Made by a program: the position numbers and the translations under genes. 64,000 nt of DNA from Myxococcota bacterium (GTDB lineage Bacteria; Myxococcota_A; Polyangia; Polyangiales; Houyiibacteriaceae): positions 1 through 64,000 of the forward strand of contig JANQQS010000026.1 in the NCBI GenBank assembly GCA_028284955.1. Reading direction: 5' to 3'. The notes beneath the pieces are model-generated. The model did not search any database, was not told the origin of the DNA, and saw only the letters and a program-made list of their open reading frames with translations. The number at the start of each line of letters is the position of its first letter. The stretch's first letter is position 1. Below are positions 1-48,869 of this stretch, piece by piece.

Positions 1-107
1 TCGTAATCTCGAGAGAAAAGCTAAGGTGTTCGGGTTCAAACTCTTACCCATCCCACAAACCGAATCGGGGGTTAGTTAGGAGACCCTCAGGCAAACTGAT
101 CAGTGCT

Positions 108-31397: not shown

Positions 31398-33644
31398 ATG
31401 GCTGCATACTTGGAGGACCGCTACGAGTTCGGGGACGAGCTCGATCGCTTGCCGCTCGGTCGTAGGTTCAAGGCCAAGGATCGACGTTTCGGAGAACCCG
31501 TCGCGGTCTCCGTGCTGGAGGTCGAGGGAGAAGGCGCGGATGCCACGCGCGCGCAGTTCACGAAAGACGCCGACGCGCTCGAACGACTGAGACATCCGCA
31601 CGTGGTGCGCGTTCGGGATGTCGGCCGCTCTCGCGCGGGTCACCCCTACATGGCCACCGAGCCGTCGGTCGGTCAGTCGATCGGAACACGACTGGAGGAA
31701 ACCCCATCACTTCTCATTACCGATTTGCTCCGAATCATCGCCGGAGCGCTCGACGGGCTCGCCGCGGTGCACGCAATCGGCACGACACACGGAGACATTG
31801 AGCTCGCGCACATTTGTCTCTTTCAGGGAGGGAGCCCCAAACTTACGGGTTTTGGACTGAACTGCGCCTGGGACCGCACCGGCCTCGTCTCGGCACAAGA
31901 CCGCGACGCGCGCGTCCAGCGCTCGCTCGCGTACATGGCGCCCGAGCAGGCCCGCGGTGAAGCACCAACTCCTCAGAGCGACATCTTCAGCATGGGCGTG
32001 GTGTTGTATGATGCAATTGCGGGCGCATTGCCATGGCCCACGACCGAACGAGACGCCGTGCGTGAAACCATCGCGGAAGGCATCTTCGTTCCGCTAAGCG
32101 AACGCCGACCGGAAGTGACCGGCCCGCTGGTTCGCACGATCGAACGCGCCCTGCAGTTGAACCCTCACGAACGTTTCGAGAGCGCGACGAGTATGCGCAA
32201 GTCTTTGATGTCGGCGATGATCGCGTCGCCCGAAGTCTGTCAGCTTTCGCTCCCCATCGCGCCTCGCGGTCAGCTCGAAGCTTCTGAAGAAGCAAGCCAG
32301 GTCCACGTACGCGCGCCGGGGCCCATGTTCCAGTTGGACCTGCCCGACCAGCCGGCCAAACCGAAGCGATCAGAGGAAATCGACCGCGCGGTAGACGAAG
32401 CAATCAACGATTTTGAGCGGAGGGAGCGAGAGGAACAGCGCCCCGACGTACCAGCGCCGATCGATCCTGCGCTGGAAGTCGCCGACACCACCAAGCACGC
32501 CGCGGTAGAATCGCTCTCGGCCGCGCCAGAAGCCAGAGAGCTCCTCGAAGACGAGACAGTCGGCGAGGGAGACCGCGACAGCGCTACGGAAGTCCTTGAA
32601 GTGGGCGAGCTGCTGGAAATTCTTCCTTCCGCAGAGCTTGCCACCAAAGGCAACACAACTTCATCGTCATCACCACGACCGGTCACCGTTCCGCCGCCGG
32701 TGCCCATTCCTCTGCTGACGAAAAAGGCTGCCCGCAATTCCAACCCTATCGCCCCCGTCGCGCAGTCCGCGGGACGCAACGGCTCATCGTCTCGCGCTTT
32801 GGCGGTGAGCCGCGCCCCAGACATTGAGTTTCCTCCCGACGTGGACATCTCCGAAGACGAATCACCGGGCGCCGATTCGCTGGTCCCCGAGTCCTTCGCG
32901 TCTTCGCCGCAGCCGGCGCTCGCAAACCCGAGACCTGAGGTTGATCTTAGAGGTGAATCGACCGTGCCCGATTTGCCGCTCGAACGCCGAACCACCACGT
33001 GGCGACCGGGGAAACGGGGTCGCACTGGACGATGGTTGTTCCCGGTTCTCGCGGTGGGCGGCTTGGCGATCGGCTGGTTCGCTTGGACGCGAACGCAGCG
33101 GGAACCTGTACGCGACGCGGAAGTTGCTCCAGAACAGTACGCGACAAACGAAGTCAACGCGAACGACGAAGCGAACCGGGATCAACCCATCAGCACGGAT
33201 ATCCCCGGCGGCTTGAGCCAGACACCATCAAGCGAAGTGAACCAAGACGACGAACTCGAGGCGTCAAGCGAGGAAGCTGACAAGAAAACTGTCGCGGTAA
33301 CCCTCACGCCGCTCCCCGACAACGCCGTCATAACGGTCGATGGAGAAACCCGCCGCCCACCCATTGAGGTACCGAACGACGGGAAGCCCCACGCCATCGC
33401 GGTTGATGTTCCCGGTTATCAAACGTGGCGCGAACAGGTATCAGCAGACGGAAACCTCACCTTTTATTTGAAGCTCGAGCGCATCACGGTTCCGTCGACC
33501 GTCGCAAAACCATCCGAAGAACCCAAACACGCCAGCCGCCGAATCGCTGCCGCGAAACCCGCGCGAGCCAGAAAACCGCGACGACCGCGCAAGACCCAGG
33601 GCCCCCCCGAGCAACCCAACGTCATCCGAGATCCCGGGTTCTAG
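31398..33644 (+). CDS. Ser/Thr pseudokinase with membrane helix and PEGA domain
   Basis: A 748-residue protein. Residues ~10-270 have a kinase fold (PTPQSDIFSMGVVLYDAIAG is the conserved helix F region) but lack key residues: no glycine-rich loop, S38 in place of the VAIK lysine, HGDIELAH (132-139) in place of HRDLKPEN so the catalytic Asp stays but Lys and Asn are lost, and GFG (152-154) in place of DFG. APE is kept. A long acidic, Ser/Pro-rich linker follows, then a membrane helix (FPVLAVGGLAIGWFAW, about 543-558) and an exported PEGA domain (about 625-690). It likely signals by binding rather than phosphorylating. The 5' end is divergent from the TPR-PEGA gene. Confidence 0.85.
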   Translation: MAAYLEDRYEFGDELDRLPLGRRFKAKDRRFGEPVAVSVLEVEGEGADATRAQFTKDADALERLRHPHVVRVRDVGRSRAGHPYMATEPSVGQSIGTRLEETPSLLITDLLRIIAGALDGLAAVHAIGTTHGDIELAHICLFQGGSPKLTGFGLNCAWDRTGLVSAQDRDARVQRSLAYMAPEQARGEAPTPQSDIFSMGVVLYDAIAGALPWPTTERDAVRETIAEGIFVPLSERRPEVTGPLVRTIERALQLNPHERFESATSMRKSLMSAMIASPEVCQLSLPIAPRGQLEASEEASQVHVRAPGPMFQLDLPDQPAKPKRSEEIDRAVDEAINDFERREREEQRPDVPAPIDPALEVADTTKHAAVESLSAAPEARELLEDETVGEGDRDSATEVLEVGELLEILPSAELATKGNTTSSSSPRPVTVPPPVPIPLLTKKAARNSNPIAPVAQSAGRNGSSSRALAVSRAPDIEFPPDVDISEDESPGADSLVPESFASSPQPALANPRPEVDLRGESTVPDLPLERRTTTWRPGKRGRTGRWLFPVLAVGGLAIGWFAWTRTQREPVRDAEVAPEQYATNEVNANDEANRDQPISTDIPGGLSQTPSSEVNQDDELEASSEEADKKTVAVTLTPLPDNAVITVDGETRRPPIEVPNDGKPHAIAVDVPGYQTWREQVSADGNLTFYLKLERITVPSTVAKPSEEPKHASRRIAAAKPARARKPRRPRKTQGPPEQPNVIRDPGF

Positions 33645-33649
33645 CCCAG

Positions 33650-34262
33650 CTGTGTTCTCTGGAGGGGCTGGCCACAGCCGCTGTGTTCTCTGGAGGGGCT
33701 GGTCGCAGCCCCTCCCCCCACGAAATACGATTCCGCGGGGGCCCCTCCCGACGCCGGCCGCTCACGCGGCCGCCCCATCGCTCCGCGACGGGGCCCCGGT
33801 CGCGTCGAGCTTCAGCCCGTGCGACAAGACTTGCGGACGACTACACCTTGGTCCTCCCGCAGTTCTCCACCACGAAACACAGCACATGCAGCCTGGCGGG
33901 GGAGTTTGGGTGACTGTGTGGTTCGGAGGGTTTGAGGCAAACCCTCCCCCCACGAAATACGATTCCGCGGGGCCCCCCTCCCGACGCCGGCCGCTGTCGC
34001 GGCCGCCCCACCGCGGAGCGGCGGGGCCCCAGCAGTTTGACCCCACACAACCAGGTCACGTGCAGCCTGGCGGGGGAGAGGGTCTGGGTGCCAGACCCTC
34101 AGAAAACACAGCCTGGCGGGGGAGTTTGGGTGAATCGGCGGGGTCGTACCCCGGCGAGAGGGTCTGGGTGCCAGACCCTCAGAAAACACAGCCTGGCGGG
34201 AGAGTTTGGGTGAATCGGCGGGGTCGTACCCCGGCGAGAGGGTCTGGGTGCCAGACCCTAAT
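33650..34262. repeat. Modular hairpin repeat cluster, copy 1
   Basis: This 613-bp gap between convergent genes has no credible CDS and is filled by hairpin modules. Stems: A at 33692-33715 and 33925-33947 (10 bp each), C' at 33755-33772, C at 33772-33794 and 34005-34027, D twice near 34139 and 34219, and E at 34079-34099, 34159-34179 and 34239-34259. The A, B, C', C order occurs twice and the D-E block is tandemly repeated with a period of 80 bp. The right edge contains the stop codon of the minus-strand lipoprotein gene. Confidence 0.9.
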
Positions 34263-34851
34263 TTAATTGATAGCCAAGGAGCGTGGCGCGAACCGACGCT
34301 TTCATTTGCGTCACGTTGGTGACAAGGCTCGCGTGTACCGCTACGGGGCCTACGTCCGGGCAGTATGTCGTGACCACCTTTCGGCCATCTGCTCCTCCAG
34401 TTTCTTCGACCCGGACGCAGCGCCTGAACGTGCCCGCTTGGGTGTTCATTGACATATCCACATCACGAATCCGGGCGGTTCGACCCGAGGCGGCGTCCCA
34501 CTCGCGTCCGACGGCAATCGGGCCGCGCAAAAGCCATGCTTCGTGAGCCGGCTGGTAGATCCCTTCGGCCCGTACCTCGTACTTCACGGATGGGCTTCGA
34601 TTATTGCTGACTTCGTACTGATTTCCGGCAGAGGACACTACGCGAGAGATACTCAGCACGCGCTCGTGTCCCGTGTCCACCGAGTATGACCACACGTTGC
34701 CCTTCGCCAGTGGGTAAAGCTGTTGCGGCGTTGGCGGCGCGGCATCTCCGGCTCTCCCTGACTGGGCTCCGCCGCACCCGACAGCAAGAGACAAAACCGT
34801 CCACGCGACCAAGGCAGGGATGATTAGAGGACGTACTTGAATGAAACCCAT
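34258..34851 (-). CDS. Predicted lipoprotein, unknown function
   Basis: A lipoprotein of about 198 residues with lipobox SLAVGC (C26 from the start at 34851). The mature part begins QLYPLAKGNVWSYSVDTG, a pattern found in beta-rich exported proteins of deltaproteobacteria. An alternative TTG start lies 18 bp upstream. The gene overlaps the end of the small upstream membrane-protein gene by 28 bp. Its TAG stop lies inside the terminal sequence of repeat cluster 1. Confidence 0.7.
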   Translation of the reverse strand: MGFIQVRPLIIPALVAWTVLSLAVGCGGAQSGRAGDAAPPTPQQLYPLAKGNVWSYSVDTGHERVLSISRVVSSAGNQYEVSNNRSPSVKYEVRAEGIYQPAHEAWLLRGPIAVGREWDAASGRTARIRDVDMSMNTQAGTFRRCVRVEETGGADGRKVVTTYCPDVGPVAVHASLVTNVTQMKASVRATLLGYQLN

Positions 34852-35135
34852 ATCAGCAAAAGCAAACAACCGACGAGCACCGCCATTGATACCGGATCGA
34901 TCGTAACCCGAGCGTACAGCGCCCGTGCTTCTTCAGCCACTTCTCGCTGCCGAAGAGCAGCCAGCGACGCACACAGCCGGCGAACAGATCGATAGTCTCC
35001 CGCGGCAAACGCCGCGTTGGCTTGCTCCAGGGTGCGCTCTGGATCCTGGCCCGACTCAGAATCACCTACCTCGCCGCCGGCATCTTTCACCCCGGAAGGG
35101 TAGCATCTATTGACTTCTGGAGCGGTTTCGCCCAT
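34824..35135 (-). CDS. Small tail-anchored membrane protein
   Basis: A 103-residue protein with an acidic N-terminus, a TPR-like helical pair (EQANAAFAAGDYRSVRRLC, about 37-55) and a C-terminal membrane helix (VSMAVLVGCLLLLIWVSF). The tail is at the extreme C-terminus, so the helical part should face the cytoplasm. It precedes and overlaps the lipoprotein gene. Function unknown. Confidence 0.6.
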   Translation of the reverse strand: MGETAPEVNRCYPSGVKDAGGEVGDSESGQDPERTLEQANAAFAAGDYRSVRRLCASLAALRQREVAEEARALYARVTIDPVSMAVLVGCLLLLIWVSFKYVL

Positions 35136-39344: not shown

Positions 39345-39778
39345 GGAGACGATTCCGCGGCTGCCCCACCGCGGAGCGGCGGGGCCCGTCAGTTTTCTCT
39401 GGAGGGTTTGAAGCAAACCCTCCCCCACGCGGGTACGACCGGCGCGGGTCCCCCTCCTGACTCCGGACGCTGCGCGTCCGCCCCATCGCTTCGCGATGGG
39501 GCCCCGGTCGCGTTTGGCTTCAGCCGTGGGATCAAGACTGCGGTCGTCAACAACACCTCGGTGGTGAACTGTGATCGTCTGGTGAGCCGCTCCAAACTGT
39601 GGCGTTAGAAGGCGCAGCTACGTCCACTGTCCGGCCGCTTCCGCGGCCGCCCCACCGCGAAGCGGCGGGGCCCCAGCAGTTCAACCCCACGTACCAGGTC
39701 ACGTGCCTCCTGGCGGGGGAGTTTGGGTGAATCGGCGGGGTCGCACCCCGACGAGAGGGTCTGGGTGCCAGACCCTAA
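39345..39778. repeat. Modular hairpin repeat cluster, copy 2
   Basis: About 430 bp of intergenic sequence with no CDS. Modules: C at 39363-39385, 39480-39502 and 39649-39671, A at 39401-39423, C' at 39464-39480 and near 39632, D near 39736-39750 and E at 39756-39776. The right edge contains the stop codon of the minus-strand lipoprotein gene that follows. The part from 39503 to 39630 is unlike the other copies except for the GGTCGCGTYKRGCTTCAG segment shared with copy 1. Confidence 0.88.
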
Positions 39779-41865
39779 TTAAGAATCGGCGGGCAGCTCT
39801 GCGTGACATCAAACGATTCCACGCGTGGAGTGATCACCTCGGTGCTGCTGCTGCGGTCCGCGATGAGGACGACTTCAACCATCAAGAACGCCTTCGATCC
39901 AACCCCCGCTGCGTCGAGCGCAGTGCCGATGGCCGCGGGAGGATCATCACCCGGAACCGCCGCTACCGAAATCCAGTTCGACTCTGTACCTGCCAAAGTA
40001 TCGAGCTCGGCTCGCGTATCCGCCGTCACCACCCGGAAGACGACCCGTGTGCCGGCCGGTGTCTCCGCCATCCATCGCAGCACACCCCAAGCCGCGGTCT
40101 CTCCCTCGCAGAGCTCGAGCACGTGCCGGTAGAATCCGCGAGGGTTCGTCGCCAGCCGCAGCTGCAAACCGGTCATATCCGAATACGTGTAGGGATCGAC
40201 GATCGACCGGGCGACATCGGAATCGACCGTCGCTTCCGTAAGGCCAGCGCCGGGGTCGATGACCACCGCGCGGTCGCTGCGGGTGATGGACCAAATCTTT
40301 CCATCCGAATCCACGGCCATTCCCTTGTTGCTGAACCCGGTGGTCCCCTCGACGGCGACCCACGACTGGTCCTCGCCCATGGCGGGTTCGTCCGCGTTTA
40401 CGCGAATCACGCCGCTGCCTTGGCCGGCGCCCCAAATCCACCCTTGCGCGTCAGCCGCAATCCCGTGAATCGCGATTCCGCCCGAGCCGTACCCCACGCG
40501 CACCCAACGATTGCCAACCGGCGCAGAGGGGTCGTATCGCTCGATATCGCCGCCGCCAATCCACACTCGCTGCTTGAAATCGACCGTGATTCCGTAGGGA
40601 GTGTGCTGGGTGCCGTCGATCCGCTGTTTGGCGCAATCGTCAAATCCGGCGCCTTCGCCCACGCAGATGTCTTCATCACATCCCGCGAGATTGGTTTCTG
40701 AGCACATCGTGGTATCGAGTCGTCCGATACGCCGACCTTCCCGCGTCGACATCCAGAGATTGCCTGCGGCGTCGATCGCAAACCCGTAGGGACGAACCGG
40801 CGCTTCGGTCACCAAGAGCACCTCGCCGGTCACACCGTCGAGCTTAGCGATCCGGTCGGTCGCGTATCCCCCGATCCATACGTACTGGAGCAGCTCACCA
40901 TCGGGGCCTTCCACGTCCTGGGCCGCGACCGCGCGGATCTGCCGCACGTCGTACTCAGAGTCTGCGAGGTCGCGATGCCAGAGCACGCAATCGTCTTCGC
41001 CCCACGGAAGCATGGTGGTGGGCGCTACGCCGCCGAAACCAGACGTCGTAATCTCTCCATCTCCATTGGTATCCGGGCAATCTTCCCCGAGCACCGAGAT
41101 GCGCGTTACGCTGCCGTTCACCCCCGAGGAACCGCCGCCGTAGGTTCGCCATTCACGGTTGCCCACATATACGTCGCCCAGCGTGTTCACCGACGTTCGC
41201 GACGGATCCATCTGCAGACGCGAACGCGTCGTCGGAACGCCAGGCCCCGATACGTCACGGTCGTCGCCGGTAATGTATCGTCCGACCTCCAGATAATCGC
41301 CGTTTTCGTCCGGCGTGGTGCTGAACCGCGATACCGAACCCTCTTCTGTGTTCGCGATCCAGATAAAGTCCGTATTGATTTCTTCCGAGTTGAGAATCAA
41401 CGCGCCGTCCGGATCCACGCCGACTCCTTGCGACGGATCCGTCGATGGATCGAAAGGATTTTCCGTGCCCGTGCCGATGCCGCCCCGTGTGCAGAAGGGG
41501 TCGCAATCGCCACACGCGGAAAGCACGCCGTTGTCTGCTTCCCCGTCGCAATCGTTGTCGCGGCCGTCACAAACCTCGGTACCGGTTTGCGTCGCATCCT
41601 GGTCGTCGCAGTCAGGTCCGCGCGCACACCCCTGACCATACCCATCACCGTCTTCATCCACTTCGCAACTCGACGGGTTTCCTCCCGAGCTATCGGGCGC
41701 CGTCGCGACAACCTGACAAGTACCATCCACGCACATTTGGTCGTCGCGGCAGTCCTCAGGGAGATCGCAAGGCGCACCACTGGCCGAATCACCACTGCAA
41801 TTGCATGAGGCAAACAACATCGCGGAGGGCACCAGGGCGTAAAAAAACAGTCGTTGAACGCGCAT
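39775..41865 (-). CDS. Cys-rich (MopE-like) lipoprotein with a beta-propeller
   Basis: A 696-residue lipoprotein (lipobox LFASC, C21). Residues ~25-130 are Cys/Asp-rich: a DGDGYG...DCDD motif and EVCDGRDNDCDGEADN, typical of putative metal-binding MopE-like domains in myxobacteria. From about 150 to 560 come repeated blades with conserved LWMSTREGRRIGRLD and IWGAGQGSGVIRV-type segments, resembling NHL/Vgb-lyase propellers. A beta-sandwich-like end follows. It is exported and anchored to a membrane. The TAG stop is inside repeat cluster 2. Confidence 0.82.
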   Translation of the reverse strand: MRVQRLFFYALVPSAMLFASCNCSGDSASGAPCDLPEDCRDDQMCVDGTCQVVATAPDSSGGNPSSCEVDEDGDGYGQGCARGPDCDDQDATQTGTEVCDGRDNDCDGEADNGVLSACGDCDPFCTRGGIGTGTENPFDPSTDPSQGVGVDPDGALILNSEEINTDFIWIANTEEGSVSRFSTTPDENGDYLEVGRYITGDDRDVSGPGVPTTRSRLQMDPSRTSVNTLGDVYVGNREWRTYGGGSSGVNGSVTRISVLGEDCPDTNGDGEITTSGFGGVAPTTMLPWGEDDCVLWHRDLADSEYDVRQIRAVAAQDVEGPDGELLQYVWIGGYATDRIAKLDGVTGEVLLVTEAPVRPYGFAIDAAGNLWMSTREGRRIGRLDTTMCSETNLAGCDEDICVGEGAGFDDCAKQRIDGTQHTPYGITVDFKQRVWIGGGDIERYDPSAPVGNRWVRVGYGSGGIAIHGIAADAQGWIWGAGQGSGVIRVNADEPAMGEDQSWVAVEGTTGFSNKGMAVDSDGKIWSITRSDRAVVIDPGAGLTEATVDSDVARSIVDPYTYSDMTGLQLRLATNPRGFYRHVLELCEGETAAWGVLRWMAETPAGTRVVFRVVTADTRAELDTLAGTESNWISVAAVPGDDPPAAIGTALDAAGVGSKAFLMVEVVLIADRSSSTEVITPRVESFDVTQSCPPILN

Positions 41866-48139: not shown

Positions 48140-48154
48140 CGGCGGCCGCCTAGT

Positions 48155-48375
48155 TGTTTGGAGGGTTTGGTGCAAACCCTCCCCCACGCGGGTACAACCC
48201 GCGCGGGACCCCCTCCCGACTCCGGCCGCTTCGCGTCCGCCCCACCGCGTAACGGCGGGGCCCCAGCAGTAAACCCATTACGTAAGCAGGTCACGTGGTT
48301 CCTGGCGGGGGAGTTTGGGTGAATCGTCCGGGATTGTATCCCGGGCGAGAGGGTTTGGGTGCCAAACCCTAATTG
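48155..48375. repeat. Modular hairpin repeat cluster, copy 3
   Basis: The shortest and cleanest copy, between the convergent vWA lipoprotein gene and the DUF6812-like gene: A at 48160-48182, B from 48185, C' near 48223, C at 48239-48261, D around 48329-48345 and E at 48350-48370, then AATTGAATCAG including the stop codon of the minus-strand gene. D and E stems carry paired substitutions relative to copies 1 and 2. Confidence 0.9.
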
Positions 48376-48377
48376 AA

Positions 48378-48869
48378 TCAGCGCATTTCTGAGACGCCAA
48401 TGATTCTTGGGGCGTTGACCATGACCACTGACGCGGCTTCGACGCTCGGACCCTTCGCGTCTAGTCCCAGCGTGCACTCGTTCATCACGAAGAATCCCTT
48501 GAACTCCATCAGTCGATCCGATACGCGCACGCCCTGCGGGAGGGTAAGCGCCCCCATAAGAAGGCCGCCTTCGAAAAGACACGACACACGACGAGGTTCG
48601 CCCTCGGATCCTTCCTCCGTGGGCTTCAGTCGTTCGTCGGCGCCAGCGACCACGAGCACTACCGCGCTGCGCTGAAGCGCAAGGAAGGGAACTTCGGTGC
48701 GCTGCTGTGGCAGCATGACGTCAGTCAGCCGAAAAAACCCATCGACGGTGTTCAGAAACTTGAGGAACGACATCTCCGGCGGCACATGAAATGTGCCGAC
48801 GACCCAACCGCCTGACACGAAGATCCGCGCTGGGACTTTACGTCGTTTCGGATTGGCGAGCGCACCCAC
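48378..48869 (-). CDS. Protein of two related beta-domains (DUF6812-like)
   Basis: A 163-residue protein made of two similar units: residues ~14-72 (ARIFVSGGWVVGTFHVP, LKFLNTVDGFFRLTD) and ~93-140 (VSCLFEGGLLMGALTLP, SDRLMEFKGFFVMNE). Each has strand-GG/G-strand, then a helix and an FF-x-x-T/N segment. The pattern resembles DUF6812, but this identification is tentative. No signal peptide is seen. Confidence 0.6.
   Translation of the reverse strand: MGALANPKRRKVPARIFVSGGWVVGTFHVPPEMSFLKFLNTVDGFFRLTDVMLPQQRTEVPFLALQRSAVVLVVAGADERLKPTEEGSEGEPRRVSCLFEGGLLMGALTLPQGVRVSDRLMEFKGFFVMNECTLGLDAKGPSVEAASVVMVNAPRIIGVSEMR

What the first reader, a model, noticed from the sequence alone, without database searches (positions are those of the whole stretch)
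33650..34262. Modular hairpin repeat family with compensating base changes between copies
Three intergenic clusters (33.65, 39.35 and 48.16 kb) share stem modules. Between copies the stems mutate in pairs. Stem A is GGGGCTG/CAGCCCC at 33692 but GGGTTTG/CAAACCC elsewhere. Stem E is GGTCTGG/CCAGACC in copies 1-2 but GGTTTGG/CCAAACC in copy 3. Stem D changes GGGGT/ACCCC to GGGAT/ATCCC. Stem C changes TCGC/GCGA to CCGC/GCGG. Stem C' changes CGGCCGC/GCGGCCG to CGGACGC/GCGTCCG at 39464. Such paired changes are the signature of selection on a fold rather than on sequence.
Basis: seen in the sequence. Interest (0 to 1): 0.82.

Follow-up and report, generated by a model that had tools for sequence, protein, structure and literature searches.

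The report
Mobile hairpin repeats behind stop codons
The three clusters are copies of a short, hairpin-forming DNA repeat that has spread through one bacterial genome and usually sits just behind the stop codons of genes, much like the REP repeats of E. coli; the stems do change in pairs, but the copies descend from a few founder versions, so this alone does not prove an RNA function.

Summary
In detail: the three clusters share hairpin modules, and every paired change listed is in the sequence. They belong to a genome-wide family: 240 exact matches to the core pattern in 6.07 Mb. It is a REP/BIME-like intergenic mosaic repeat of a myxobacterial lineage. Two homologous end modules (A-B, and E-D with a GGGTGAA tag) read inward from gene ends. 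Of 1126 sampled stop codons, 64 have a module within 30 nt: 63 in sense, 1 antisense or solo. Positions are not shared with the neighbouring genus (0 of 14 informative ortholog pairs), so the family has spread separately. An IS110-family element sits in the E hairpin at 12 of 12 left and 5 of 5 right junctions. Stem pairs lead the covariation ranking, but a tree-aware test passes only 1 of 19 pairs, intermediates are almost absent, and G·U is not favoured over A·C in E and D: mostly founder variants, amplified. No GTAG/CGTC tag and no nearby RAYT were found, so it works like a REP but is not a tested member of a named REP superfamily. Similar two-hairpin modules occur in two other families of the order.

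The parts
33649..34260 (.). Cluster 1: two A-B-C'-C units followed by three E modules (two complete E-D, 80-nt period) between two convergent genes (31398-33644 + and 34258-34869 -)
39350..39777 (.). Cluster 2: C'/C fragment, A-B-C'-C unit, second C'-C, one complete E-D module; its E end overlaps the TAG stop of gene 39775-41661 (-)
48145..48371 (.). Cluster 3: one full-length element A-B-C'-C-spacer-D-E that fills the gap between two convergent genes
   Evidence: RNA fold of the minus strand z = -4.8, plus strand -3.7
33692..33715 (+). Hairpin A, GGAGGGGCTG/CAGCCCCTCC
33661..33679 (+). Degenerate first copy of hairpin A (stem broken)
33925..33947 (+). Hairpin A, GGAGGGTTTG/CAAACCCTCC
39401..39423 (+). 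Hairpin A, GGAGGGTTTG/CAAACCCTCC
48160..48182 (+). Hairpin A, GGAGGGTTTG/CAAACCCTCC
48187..48203 (+). Hairpin B (TACRA loop; homologous to D read on the other strand)
33755..33772 (.). Hairpin C' CGGCCGC/GCGGCCG (also 33988-34005 and 39632-39649)
39464..39480 (.). Hairpin C' with the paired change CGGACGC/GCGTCCG
   Evidence: read directly
48223..48239 (.). Hairpin C' with an uncompensated C·T pair (CGGCCGC/GCGTCCG)
   Evidence: read directly
33772..33794 (.). Hairpin C (also 34005-34027, 39480-39502, 39649-39671)
34113..34179 (-). End module E-D with GGGTGAA tag, on the strand of the gene to its right
   Evidence: covariance model R1, 99.3 bits
34193..34259 (-). End module E-D; E overlaps the stop codon of gene 34258-34869 (-)
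   Evidence: 96.7 bits
39710..39776 (-). End module E-D; E overlaps the stop codon of gene 39775-41661 (-)
   Evidence: 97.2 bits
48302..48370 (-). End module E-D, 7 nt behind the TGA of the gene that ends at 48378 (-)
   Evidence: 90.2 bits
33893..33945 (-). Partial module (tail next to hairpin A of the following unit)
   Evidence: 38.5 bits
34067..34099 (-). Partial module (E hairpin fused to the tail, D missing)
   Evidence: 32.1 bits

Best explanation
This is a high-copy REP/BIME-like family of intergenic palindromic mosaic repeats. SHOWN: a full element has two inward-reading, homologous end modules. One is hairpin A plus a hairpin B with a TACGA loop. The other is hairpin E plus hairpin D, followed by ATTCACCC (the tag GGGTGAA at the foot of D on the other strand). 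Between them lie hairpins C', C and a spacer. Tandem and half copies are common. End modules sit in sense orientation right behind stop codons, most often at 7-8 or 20 nt, with a leader that belongs to the element. INFERRED: the family spreads as non-autonomous mobile DNA by an unidentified enzyme that acts on the hairpins and prefers a CT at the junction, as the HuH enzymes of REP systems do. Insertions behind stop codons survive because coding sequence is untouched. The transcribed hairpins then act on the upstream mRNA, most likely as a 3' barrier to exonucleases and, within 15 nt of the stop, as a brake on translation, as reported for E. coli REPs. Stems stay paired because copying or recognition needs them; the paired alternatives seen here are mostly a few founder variants that were amplified and recombined.
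For: Copy number: 240 exact, 267 at up to 2 mismatches with 0 in the reversed control. Polarity: of 1126 stops, 49 E sense, 14 A sense, 0 E antisense, 1 A antisense/solo within 30 nt. E within 30 nt of a sense stop in 31 of 65 copies against mean 2.9, maximum 11 in 2000 random placements; neighbouring genus 10 of 20 against mean 1.4, maximum 6. Element-free stops have no hairpin excess: 2.1% of 606 against 1.5% shuffled; element-adjacent stops 72% of 85. Stops look native: ATP synthase gamma and ArgJ reach the profile end, and one ortholog pair ends within 2 residues. Positions differ between genera: 0 of 14 informative reciprocal-best pairs share an element. An IS110-family element sits in the E hairpin at 12 of 12 left and 5 of 5 right junctions. 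Base C before the stop: 29 of 38 (21 of 30 at 5-14 nt, 8 of 8 type II) against 32.5% background, binomial 3.9e-8; the other distance groups (12, 12 and 3 stops) were not in that test. Literature: REPs lie under 20 bp from the 3' ends of flanking ORFs (PMC3733652, section read), IS110 elements target REPs (PMC1525189, passages), TnpAREP cleaves at CT (PMC8266576, passages), REPs within 15 nt of a stop act on translation (PMC12306157, passages).
Against: No mobilising enzyme was identified. None of the 3 Y1-transposase genes of the genome has a module in the stretch fetched around it, nor do the 4 loci of the neighbouring genus, which show only weak tail-like matches, or 13 loci in G025. No target-site duplication and no empty site was shown. 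No GTAG or CGTC tag. There are no transcript data, so any RNA effect is untested. A second repeat family without these hairpins shows the same stop-codon polarity, so the polarity need not depend on the hairpins. For convergent gaps, adjacency at both ends partly reflects that such gaps are short anyway (38% of 144 element-free gaps are at most 25 nt; residual at most 25 nt in 45% of 29 with an element). Genes were called with a home-made codon scorer.
Confidence: 0.72

Rival explanations
1. A family of functional 3'-end RNA elements (terminators or mRNA stabilisers) kept by selection on the fold; copies are homogenised by gene conversion rather than being mobile.
For: Sense polarity at stops, 7-8 nt spacing, strong fold on the sense strand (z -4.8), paired changes above shuffles, architecture kept in other families of the order with different stems.
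Against: Only 64 of 1126 stops carry one and other stops have no comparable hairpin. No T-run behind the E or D hairpin on the sense strand, and terminator-like sites in the region are at chance level, 17 against 14.1. Positions are not conserved. No G·U preference in E and D.
Confidence: 0.15
2. MITEs of a classical DNA transposon that targets CTAG or TA; stop codons are hit because TAG lies in CTAG, and insertion there keeps the stop.
For: Type II copies start at TAG-AGCAGTG and end in CACTGCTCTA; the base before the stop is C in 8 of 8 of them. In G025 the related module lies between CTAG motifs in a composite repeat.
Against: Type I copies also follow TGA and TAA stops. Orientation at stops is one-sided (type II E end 8, other end 1), which symmetric insertion would not give. 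No transposase with these ends was found, though it was not searched for exhaustively.
Confidence: 0.2
3. The paired changes are only a by-product: few founder hairpins amplified, or arms corrected against each other by template switching, with no function of the fold. This can be true together with the best explanation's mobility.
For: One of 19 stem pairs significant with the tree kept; intermediates about 1-2 in 101 at E pair 6 and D pair 2; common mismatches at C', C and D.
Against: Hairpin architecture with different stem letters recurs in other genera and families, and the IS110 element is found only in the E hairpin.
Confidence: 0.3

Closest known systems
REP / BIME elements (repetitive extragenic palindromes, bacterial interspersed mosaic elements)
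   Same: Hundreds of copies, intergenic, palindromic, mosaic and tandem, inverted pairs, mostly a few nt behind the 3' ends of tandem and convergent genes, stop codon sometimes overlapping the repeat, landing site of an IS110-family element.
   Different: Two hairpins per end module instead of one; tag GGGTGAA instead of GTAG or CGTC; no RAYT found near copies; lineage not named in the one REP survey checked for it.
REPINs with RAYT (TnpAREP)
   Same: Inverted end modules; a CT-like junction preference.
   Different: None of the 3 Y1 genes of the genome is near a copy; Y1 relatives are found in 28 of 37 genomes whether or not the repeat is there.
MITEs
   Same: Short non-autonomous units with inverted ends, some nested.
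   Different: No transposase or target duplication shown; one-sided orientation at stop codons.
IS621 / IS110 bridge-RNA elements in E. coli REP
   Same: The IS110-family element here inserts at one point of the repeat hairpin; its 187-nt leader holds GGGTGCCAG (same as the left target) and GGGTC (part of the expected right-target guide), read by eye.
   Different: The bridge RNA was not modelled; a different element and target.

Membership tests
REP in general | High-copy short palindromes, intergenic, near 3' ends of genes | tested here: met
GTAG REP superfamily | GTAG (or close variant) at the foot of the palindrome | tested here: not met
   The foot of D reads GGGTGAA in own and g8 copies and in the G025 and G024 hits
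GTAG REP superfamily | RAYT gene flanked by the repeats | tested here: not met
   3 of 3 Y1 loci of the genome, 4 of G007/G014, 13 of G025 and 5 of 8 of G024: no module nearby; 3 of the 8 G024 places were not examined
CGTC REP superfamily | Unpaired CGTC tag, 8-9 bp stem beginning with A-T pairs, CCA tail (PMC3733652) | tested here: not met
   CGTC occurs in part of the copies but inside the D stem of the own copies and is not conserved
BIME | Mosaic of palindromic units in opposite orientation with spacers | tested here: met
   A-B and E-D face each other; R1 finds A-B on the opposite strand at 22.9 and 18.8 bits
Intrinsic terminator | Hairpin followed by a T-run | tested here: not met
   Sense strand: E is followed by CTC and D by GATTCACCC; scan at chance level, although one + strand hit at 34239-34259 is listed there with tail AATTTAATTG
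Rfam RNA family | Match to a covariance model | tested here: not met
   no match
MITE | Terminal inverted repeats and target-site duplication | tested here: inconclusive
   Inverted ends seen in type II; no empty site available for a duplication

The most novel reading that the evidence does not exclude
A further, so far unnamed superfamily of REP-like repeats, with the tag GGGTGAA at the foot of a two-hairpin module, present as separate repeat families in at least three families of one myxobacterial order, and dispersed by an enzyme that does not depend on a linked RAYT and that leaves the module in sense orientation behind stop codons.
Probability: 0.3. Interest if true: 0.6.

Novelty: new variant of a known kind. 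Interest (0 to 1): 0.42.

Why it matters
It shows that repeats with the positional habits of proteobacterial REPs (behind stop codons, hit by IS110 elements) also occur in a myxobacterial lineage with a different tag and a two-hairpin module, apparently without a linked RAYT. That makes it a test case for how such repeats spread and why they sit at stop codons. It is also a caution: paired changes between paralogous repeat copies are weak evidence for selection on an RNA fold unless the tree of copies is taken into account.

Tried and rejected
Rfam: nothing. tRNA/tmRNA scan: nothing. Viral contigs: 0 matches to the core. Intrinsic terminators: not above chance. RAYT as the linked mobiliser: not near any copy examined, and RAYT-like genes are in 28 of 37 genomes without tracking the repeat. 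General terminator architecture of the genome: rejected, since stops without the element lack hairpins. Stop codon created by the insertion: considered for type I and judged unlikely, since conserved proteins end where expected. Integron attC and DNA uptake sequences were considered from memory and dropped (dispersed housekeeping genes, too few copies); not tested by a tool. Twenty stretches taken from long contigs away from listed copies gave only 5 blocks in 397 kb; long contigs are poor in copies, so this is not an unbiased density. First gene calls in the neighbouring genus were poor and were redone. Pair tallies for hairpin A are misaligned and not used. The patterns for the far ends of type II and of the second repeat were too loose and are not used. 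Calibration of model R1 was short, so E-values of remote hits are rough.

Papers: search listings; passages of PMC8266576, PMC1525189, PMC11208160 and PMC12306157; abstract, sections 6 and 15 and a term search of PMC3733652, which has 0 mentions of the myxobacterial terms searched. No description of this family was seen in those searches; that is not a claim that none exists.

Full report
1. WHAT IS THERE. The window is contig C213 of a 6,069,039-base draft genome in 223 contigs. Clusters 1 and 3 lie between convergent genes, cluster 2 between two genes on the minus strand. At 34258 and 39775 the stop codon overlaps the outer end of hairpin E.

2. IT IS A GENOME-WIDE FAMILY. The core GGCGGGGGAGTTTGGGTGA has 267 matches at up to 2 mismatches in the genome and 0 for the reversed control. 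The two-part pattern for E plus the tail has 240 exact matches. Among the 183 genomes of the order searched, five have any match: this one, two of a neighbouring genus (14 and 4) and two with a single match that looks like chance. Many contigs end at copies, as expected of a repeat that breaks assemblies.

3. ANATOMY. Read from the gene, the end module is: stop codon, T-rich leader of about 8 nt, hairpin E (AGGGTYTGG-CAC-CCARACCCT), CTC, hairpin D (loop TACGA or TACAA), GATTCACCCAARCTCCCCCGCC. At the other end of a full element hairpins A and B, the latter with the same TACGA loop, form a homologous module that reads inward from the other side; the covariance model built from E-D copies finds A-B on the opposite strand at 22.9 and 18.8 bits. 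Hairpins C' and C and a spacer lie between. Tandem E-D copies occur at a period of 80 nt. A second form ('type II') has a 20-nt leader TAGAGCAGTGRTCAGTTTGCCTG and ends in CTGACCACTGCTCTA.

4. POSITION. I called genes with a codon scorer written here. Of 1126 stop codons in the sampled stretches, 64 have a module within 30 nt: 49 E in sense, 14 A in sense, 0 E antisense, 1 A antisense or solo. Distances peak at 7-8 and at 20 nt. E lies within 30 nt of a sense stop in 31 of 65 copies in closed gaps; 2000 random placements give a mean of 2.9 and a maximum of 11. In the neighbouring genus it is 10 of 20 against a mean of 1.4 and a maximum of 6. Stops without the element show no hairpin excess (2.1% of 606 against 1.5% shuffled; 72% of 85 with the element), and their first bases are not T-rich, so the hairpin and the leader come with the element. 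The base before the stop is C in 29 of 38 cases (groups 5-14 nt and type II) against 32.5%; three further groups of 12, 12 and 3 stops were not in that test (C in 4, 4 and 2). Because both end modules read inward, an intact element next to a stop is in sense whichever way round it lies; the E-D tail, which belongs to one end only, shows polarity of its own (first tail motif in sense behind 44 stops, antisense behind 4, of 1105).

5. MOBILITY. Stops are native: ATP synthase gamma and ArgJ match their Pfam profiles to the end. Of 87 reciprocal best pairs between sampled genes of this genome and G007/G014, 14 have a module behind the gene in one genome and none in both; about 0.5 shared would be expected by chance, so this shows lack of strong conservation, not avoidance. 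Copies arose separately behind intact genes. The enzyme is unknown. The genome has 3 Y1-transposase relatives and none has a module in the stretch fetched around it.

6. PAIRED CHANGES. On 63 distinct copies (52 of this genome, 11 of the neighbouring genus; 98 matches before identical ones were merged), 95.0% of cells pair and 76 cells change on both sides against 20.0 in shuffles, with 0 of 500 shuffles reaching it; but the number of further pair types is lower than shuffled (11 against 13.4), and the number of pairs with such a change is not unusual, 6 against 4.8. I wrote a test in the manner of R-scape that keeps the tree of copies (97 of 101 rows, 58 distinct): the three best column pairs are stem pairs, but only one pair of D passes E<0.05 (0.01), with E pair 6 at 0.31; adding the neighbouring genus, none passes (best 0.067). 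Intermediates are rare: E pair 6 is C-G 86, T-A 13, T-G 1, G-G 1; D pair 2 is G-C 59, A-T 41, G-T 1. In E plus D, G·U counts 7 and A·C 16 on the sense strand; in B and C, A·C 38 and 83 against G·U 1 and 3 in the A-first orientation, which means G·U on the strand read from the E end, at a few founder positions. Paired change is real, but most of it is amplification of a few founder versions.

7. AN IS110-FAMILY ELEMENT USES THE HAIRPIN. A 483-aa transposase (PF01548, PF02371) lies in an element whose 12 readable left junctions all read AGGGTCT-C-CTAACTAACC and whose 5 right junctions all continue GGCACCCARACCC, i.e. it sits in the middle of hairpin E. Its 187-nt leader contains GGGTGCCAG, identical to the left target as seen from the element, and GGGTC, part of the expected right-target guide (read by eye; roles as described in PMC11208160, passages). 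I did not model the bridge RNA.

8. RELATIVES FURTHER OUT. Model R1 found 37 hits in G025 (family f3), 2 in G015 (f1) and 1 in G024 (f2). The G025 and G024 hits show a G-rich first hairpin, a second hairpin and then TTCACCC, with different stem letters; the G015 hits resemble the A-B end. The 37 G025 hits are near-identical copies of one composite repeat whose parts are bounded by CTAG, so they count once. E-values are 1.5e-5 to 4.6e-4 with a rough calibration.

9. WHAT IT IS. The positional habits are those of REP/BIME elements: PMC3733652 (section read) reports most convergent REPs under 20 bp from both flanking 3' ends and REP termini that provide the stop codon; PMC1525189 (passages) reports IS110 elements in REPs; PMC12306157 (passages) reports that REPs within 15 nt of a stop act on translation. 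In the present set 30 of 49 E and 12 of 14 A modules lie within 15 nt (counted). It fails the tag and RAYT tests of the named superfamilies, so I file it as a REP-like variant, not as a member of either superfamily. Steps shown: family, anatomy, position, lineage-specific sites, IS110 target. Steps inferred: mobilisation by a CT-cleaving enzyme, effect on mRNA.

Noticed in passing
window 1-97 (minus strand); L091 1-1528, L097 1-1660; junctions in L085-L096 and L163-L167: IS110-family element inserted in the middle of hairpin E at 12 of 12 left and 5 of 5 right junctions; its leader holds guide-like matches to both halves of the target.
   Followed up: partly
L002, L004, L020, L023, L033, L036, L046, L052 and others; 68 near ends counted: A second repeat with ends TAGAGCAGTGGCCTTTTG also starts at stop codons in one orientation: 28 of 68 within 10 nt behind a sense stop, 1 behind an antisense start.
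   Followed up: partly
L168, L171, L173-L197 (G025): A composite repeat in another family of the order, built of modules bounded by CTAG, one of which has the same two-hairpin plus TTCACCC plan.
   Followed up: partly
L170 (G024), flanks of the hit: Further hairpins with a TCGTA loop (CTTGGGTCGTACCCAAG) around the single G024 hit suggest another repeat family of the same kind.
   Followed up: no
L169, L172 (G015): Two hits resembling the A-B end module in another genus of the same family.
   Followed up: no
L047 9667-9890: Four E-D modules in tandem at a period of 66-68 nt behind one stop codon.
   Followed up: no
window 33652-34266 (+): A 204-aa open frame runs through cluster 1; it looks like a by-product of the repeats and an annotation trap.
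   Followed up: no
L021 1432-2340; G000 C146:42457-43329 and C159:9881-10300: Three Y1-transposase (RAYT-like) genes in the genome, none near a copy of the repeat; relatives of the L021 protein in 28 of 37 genomes.
   Followed up: partly
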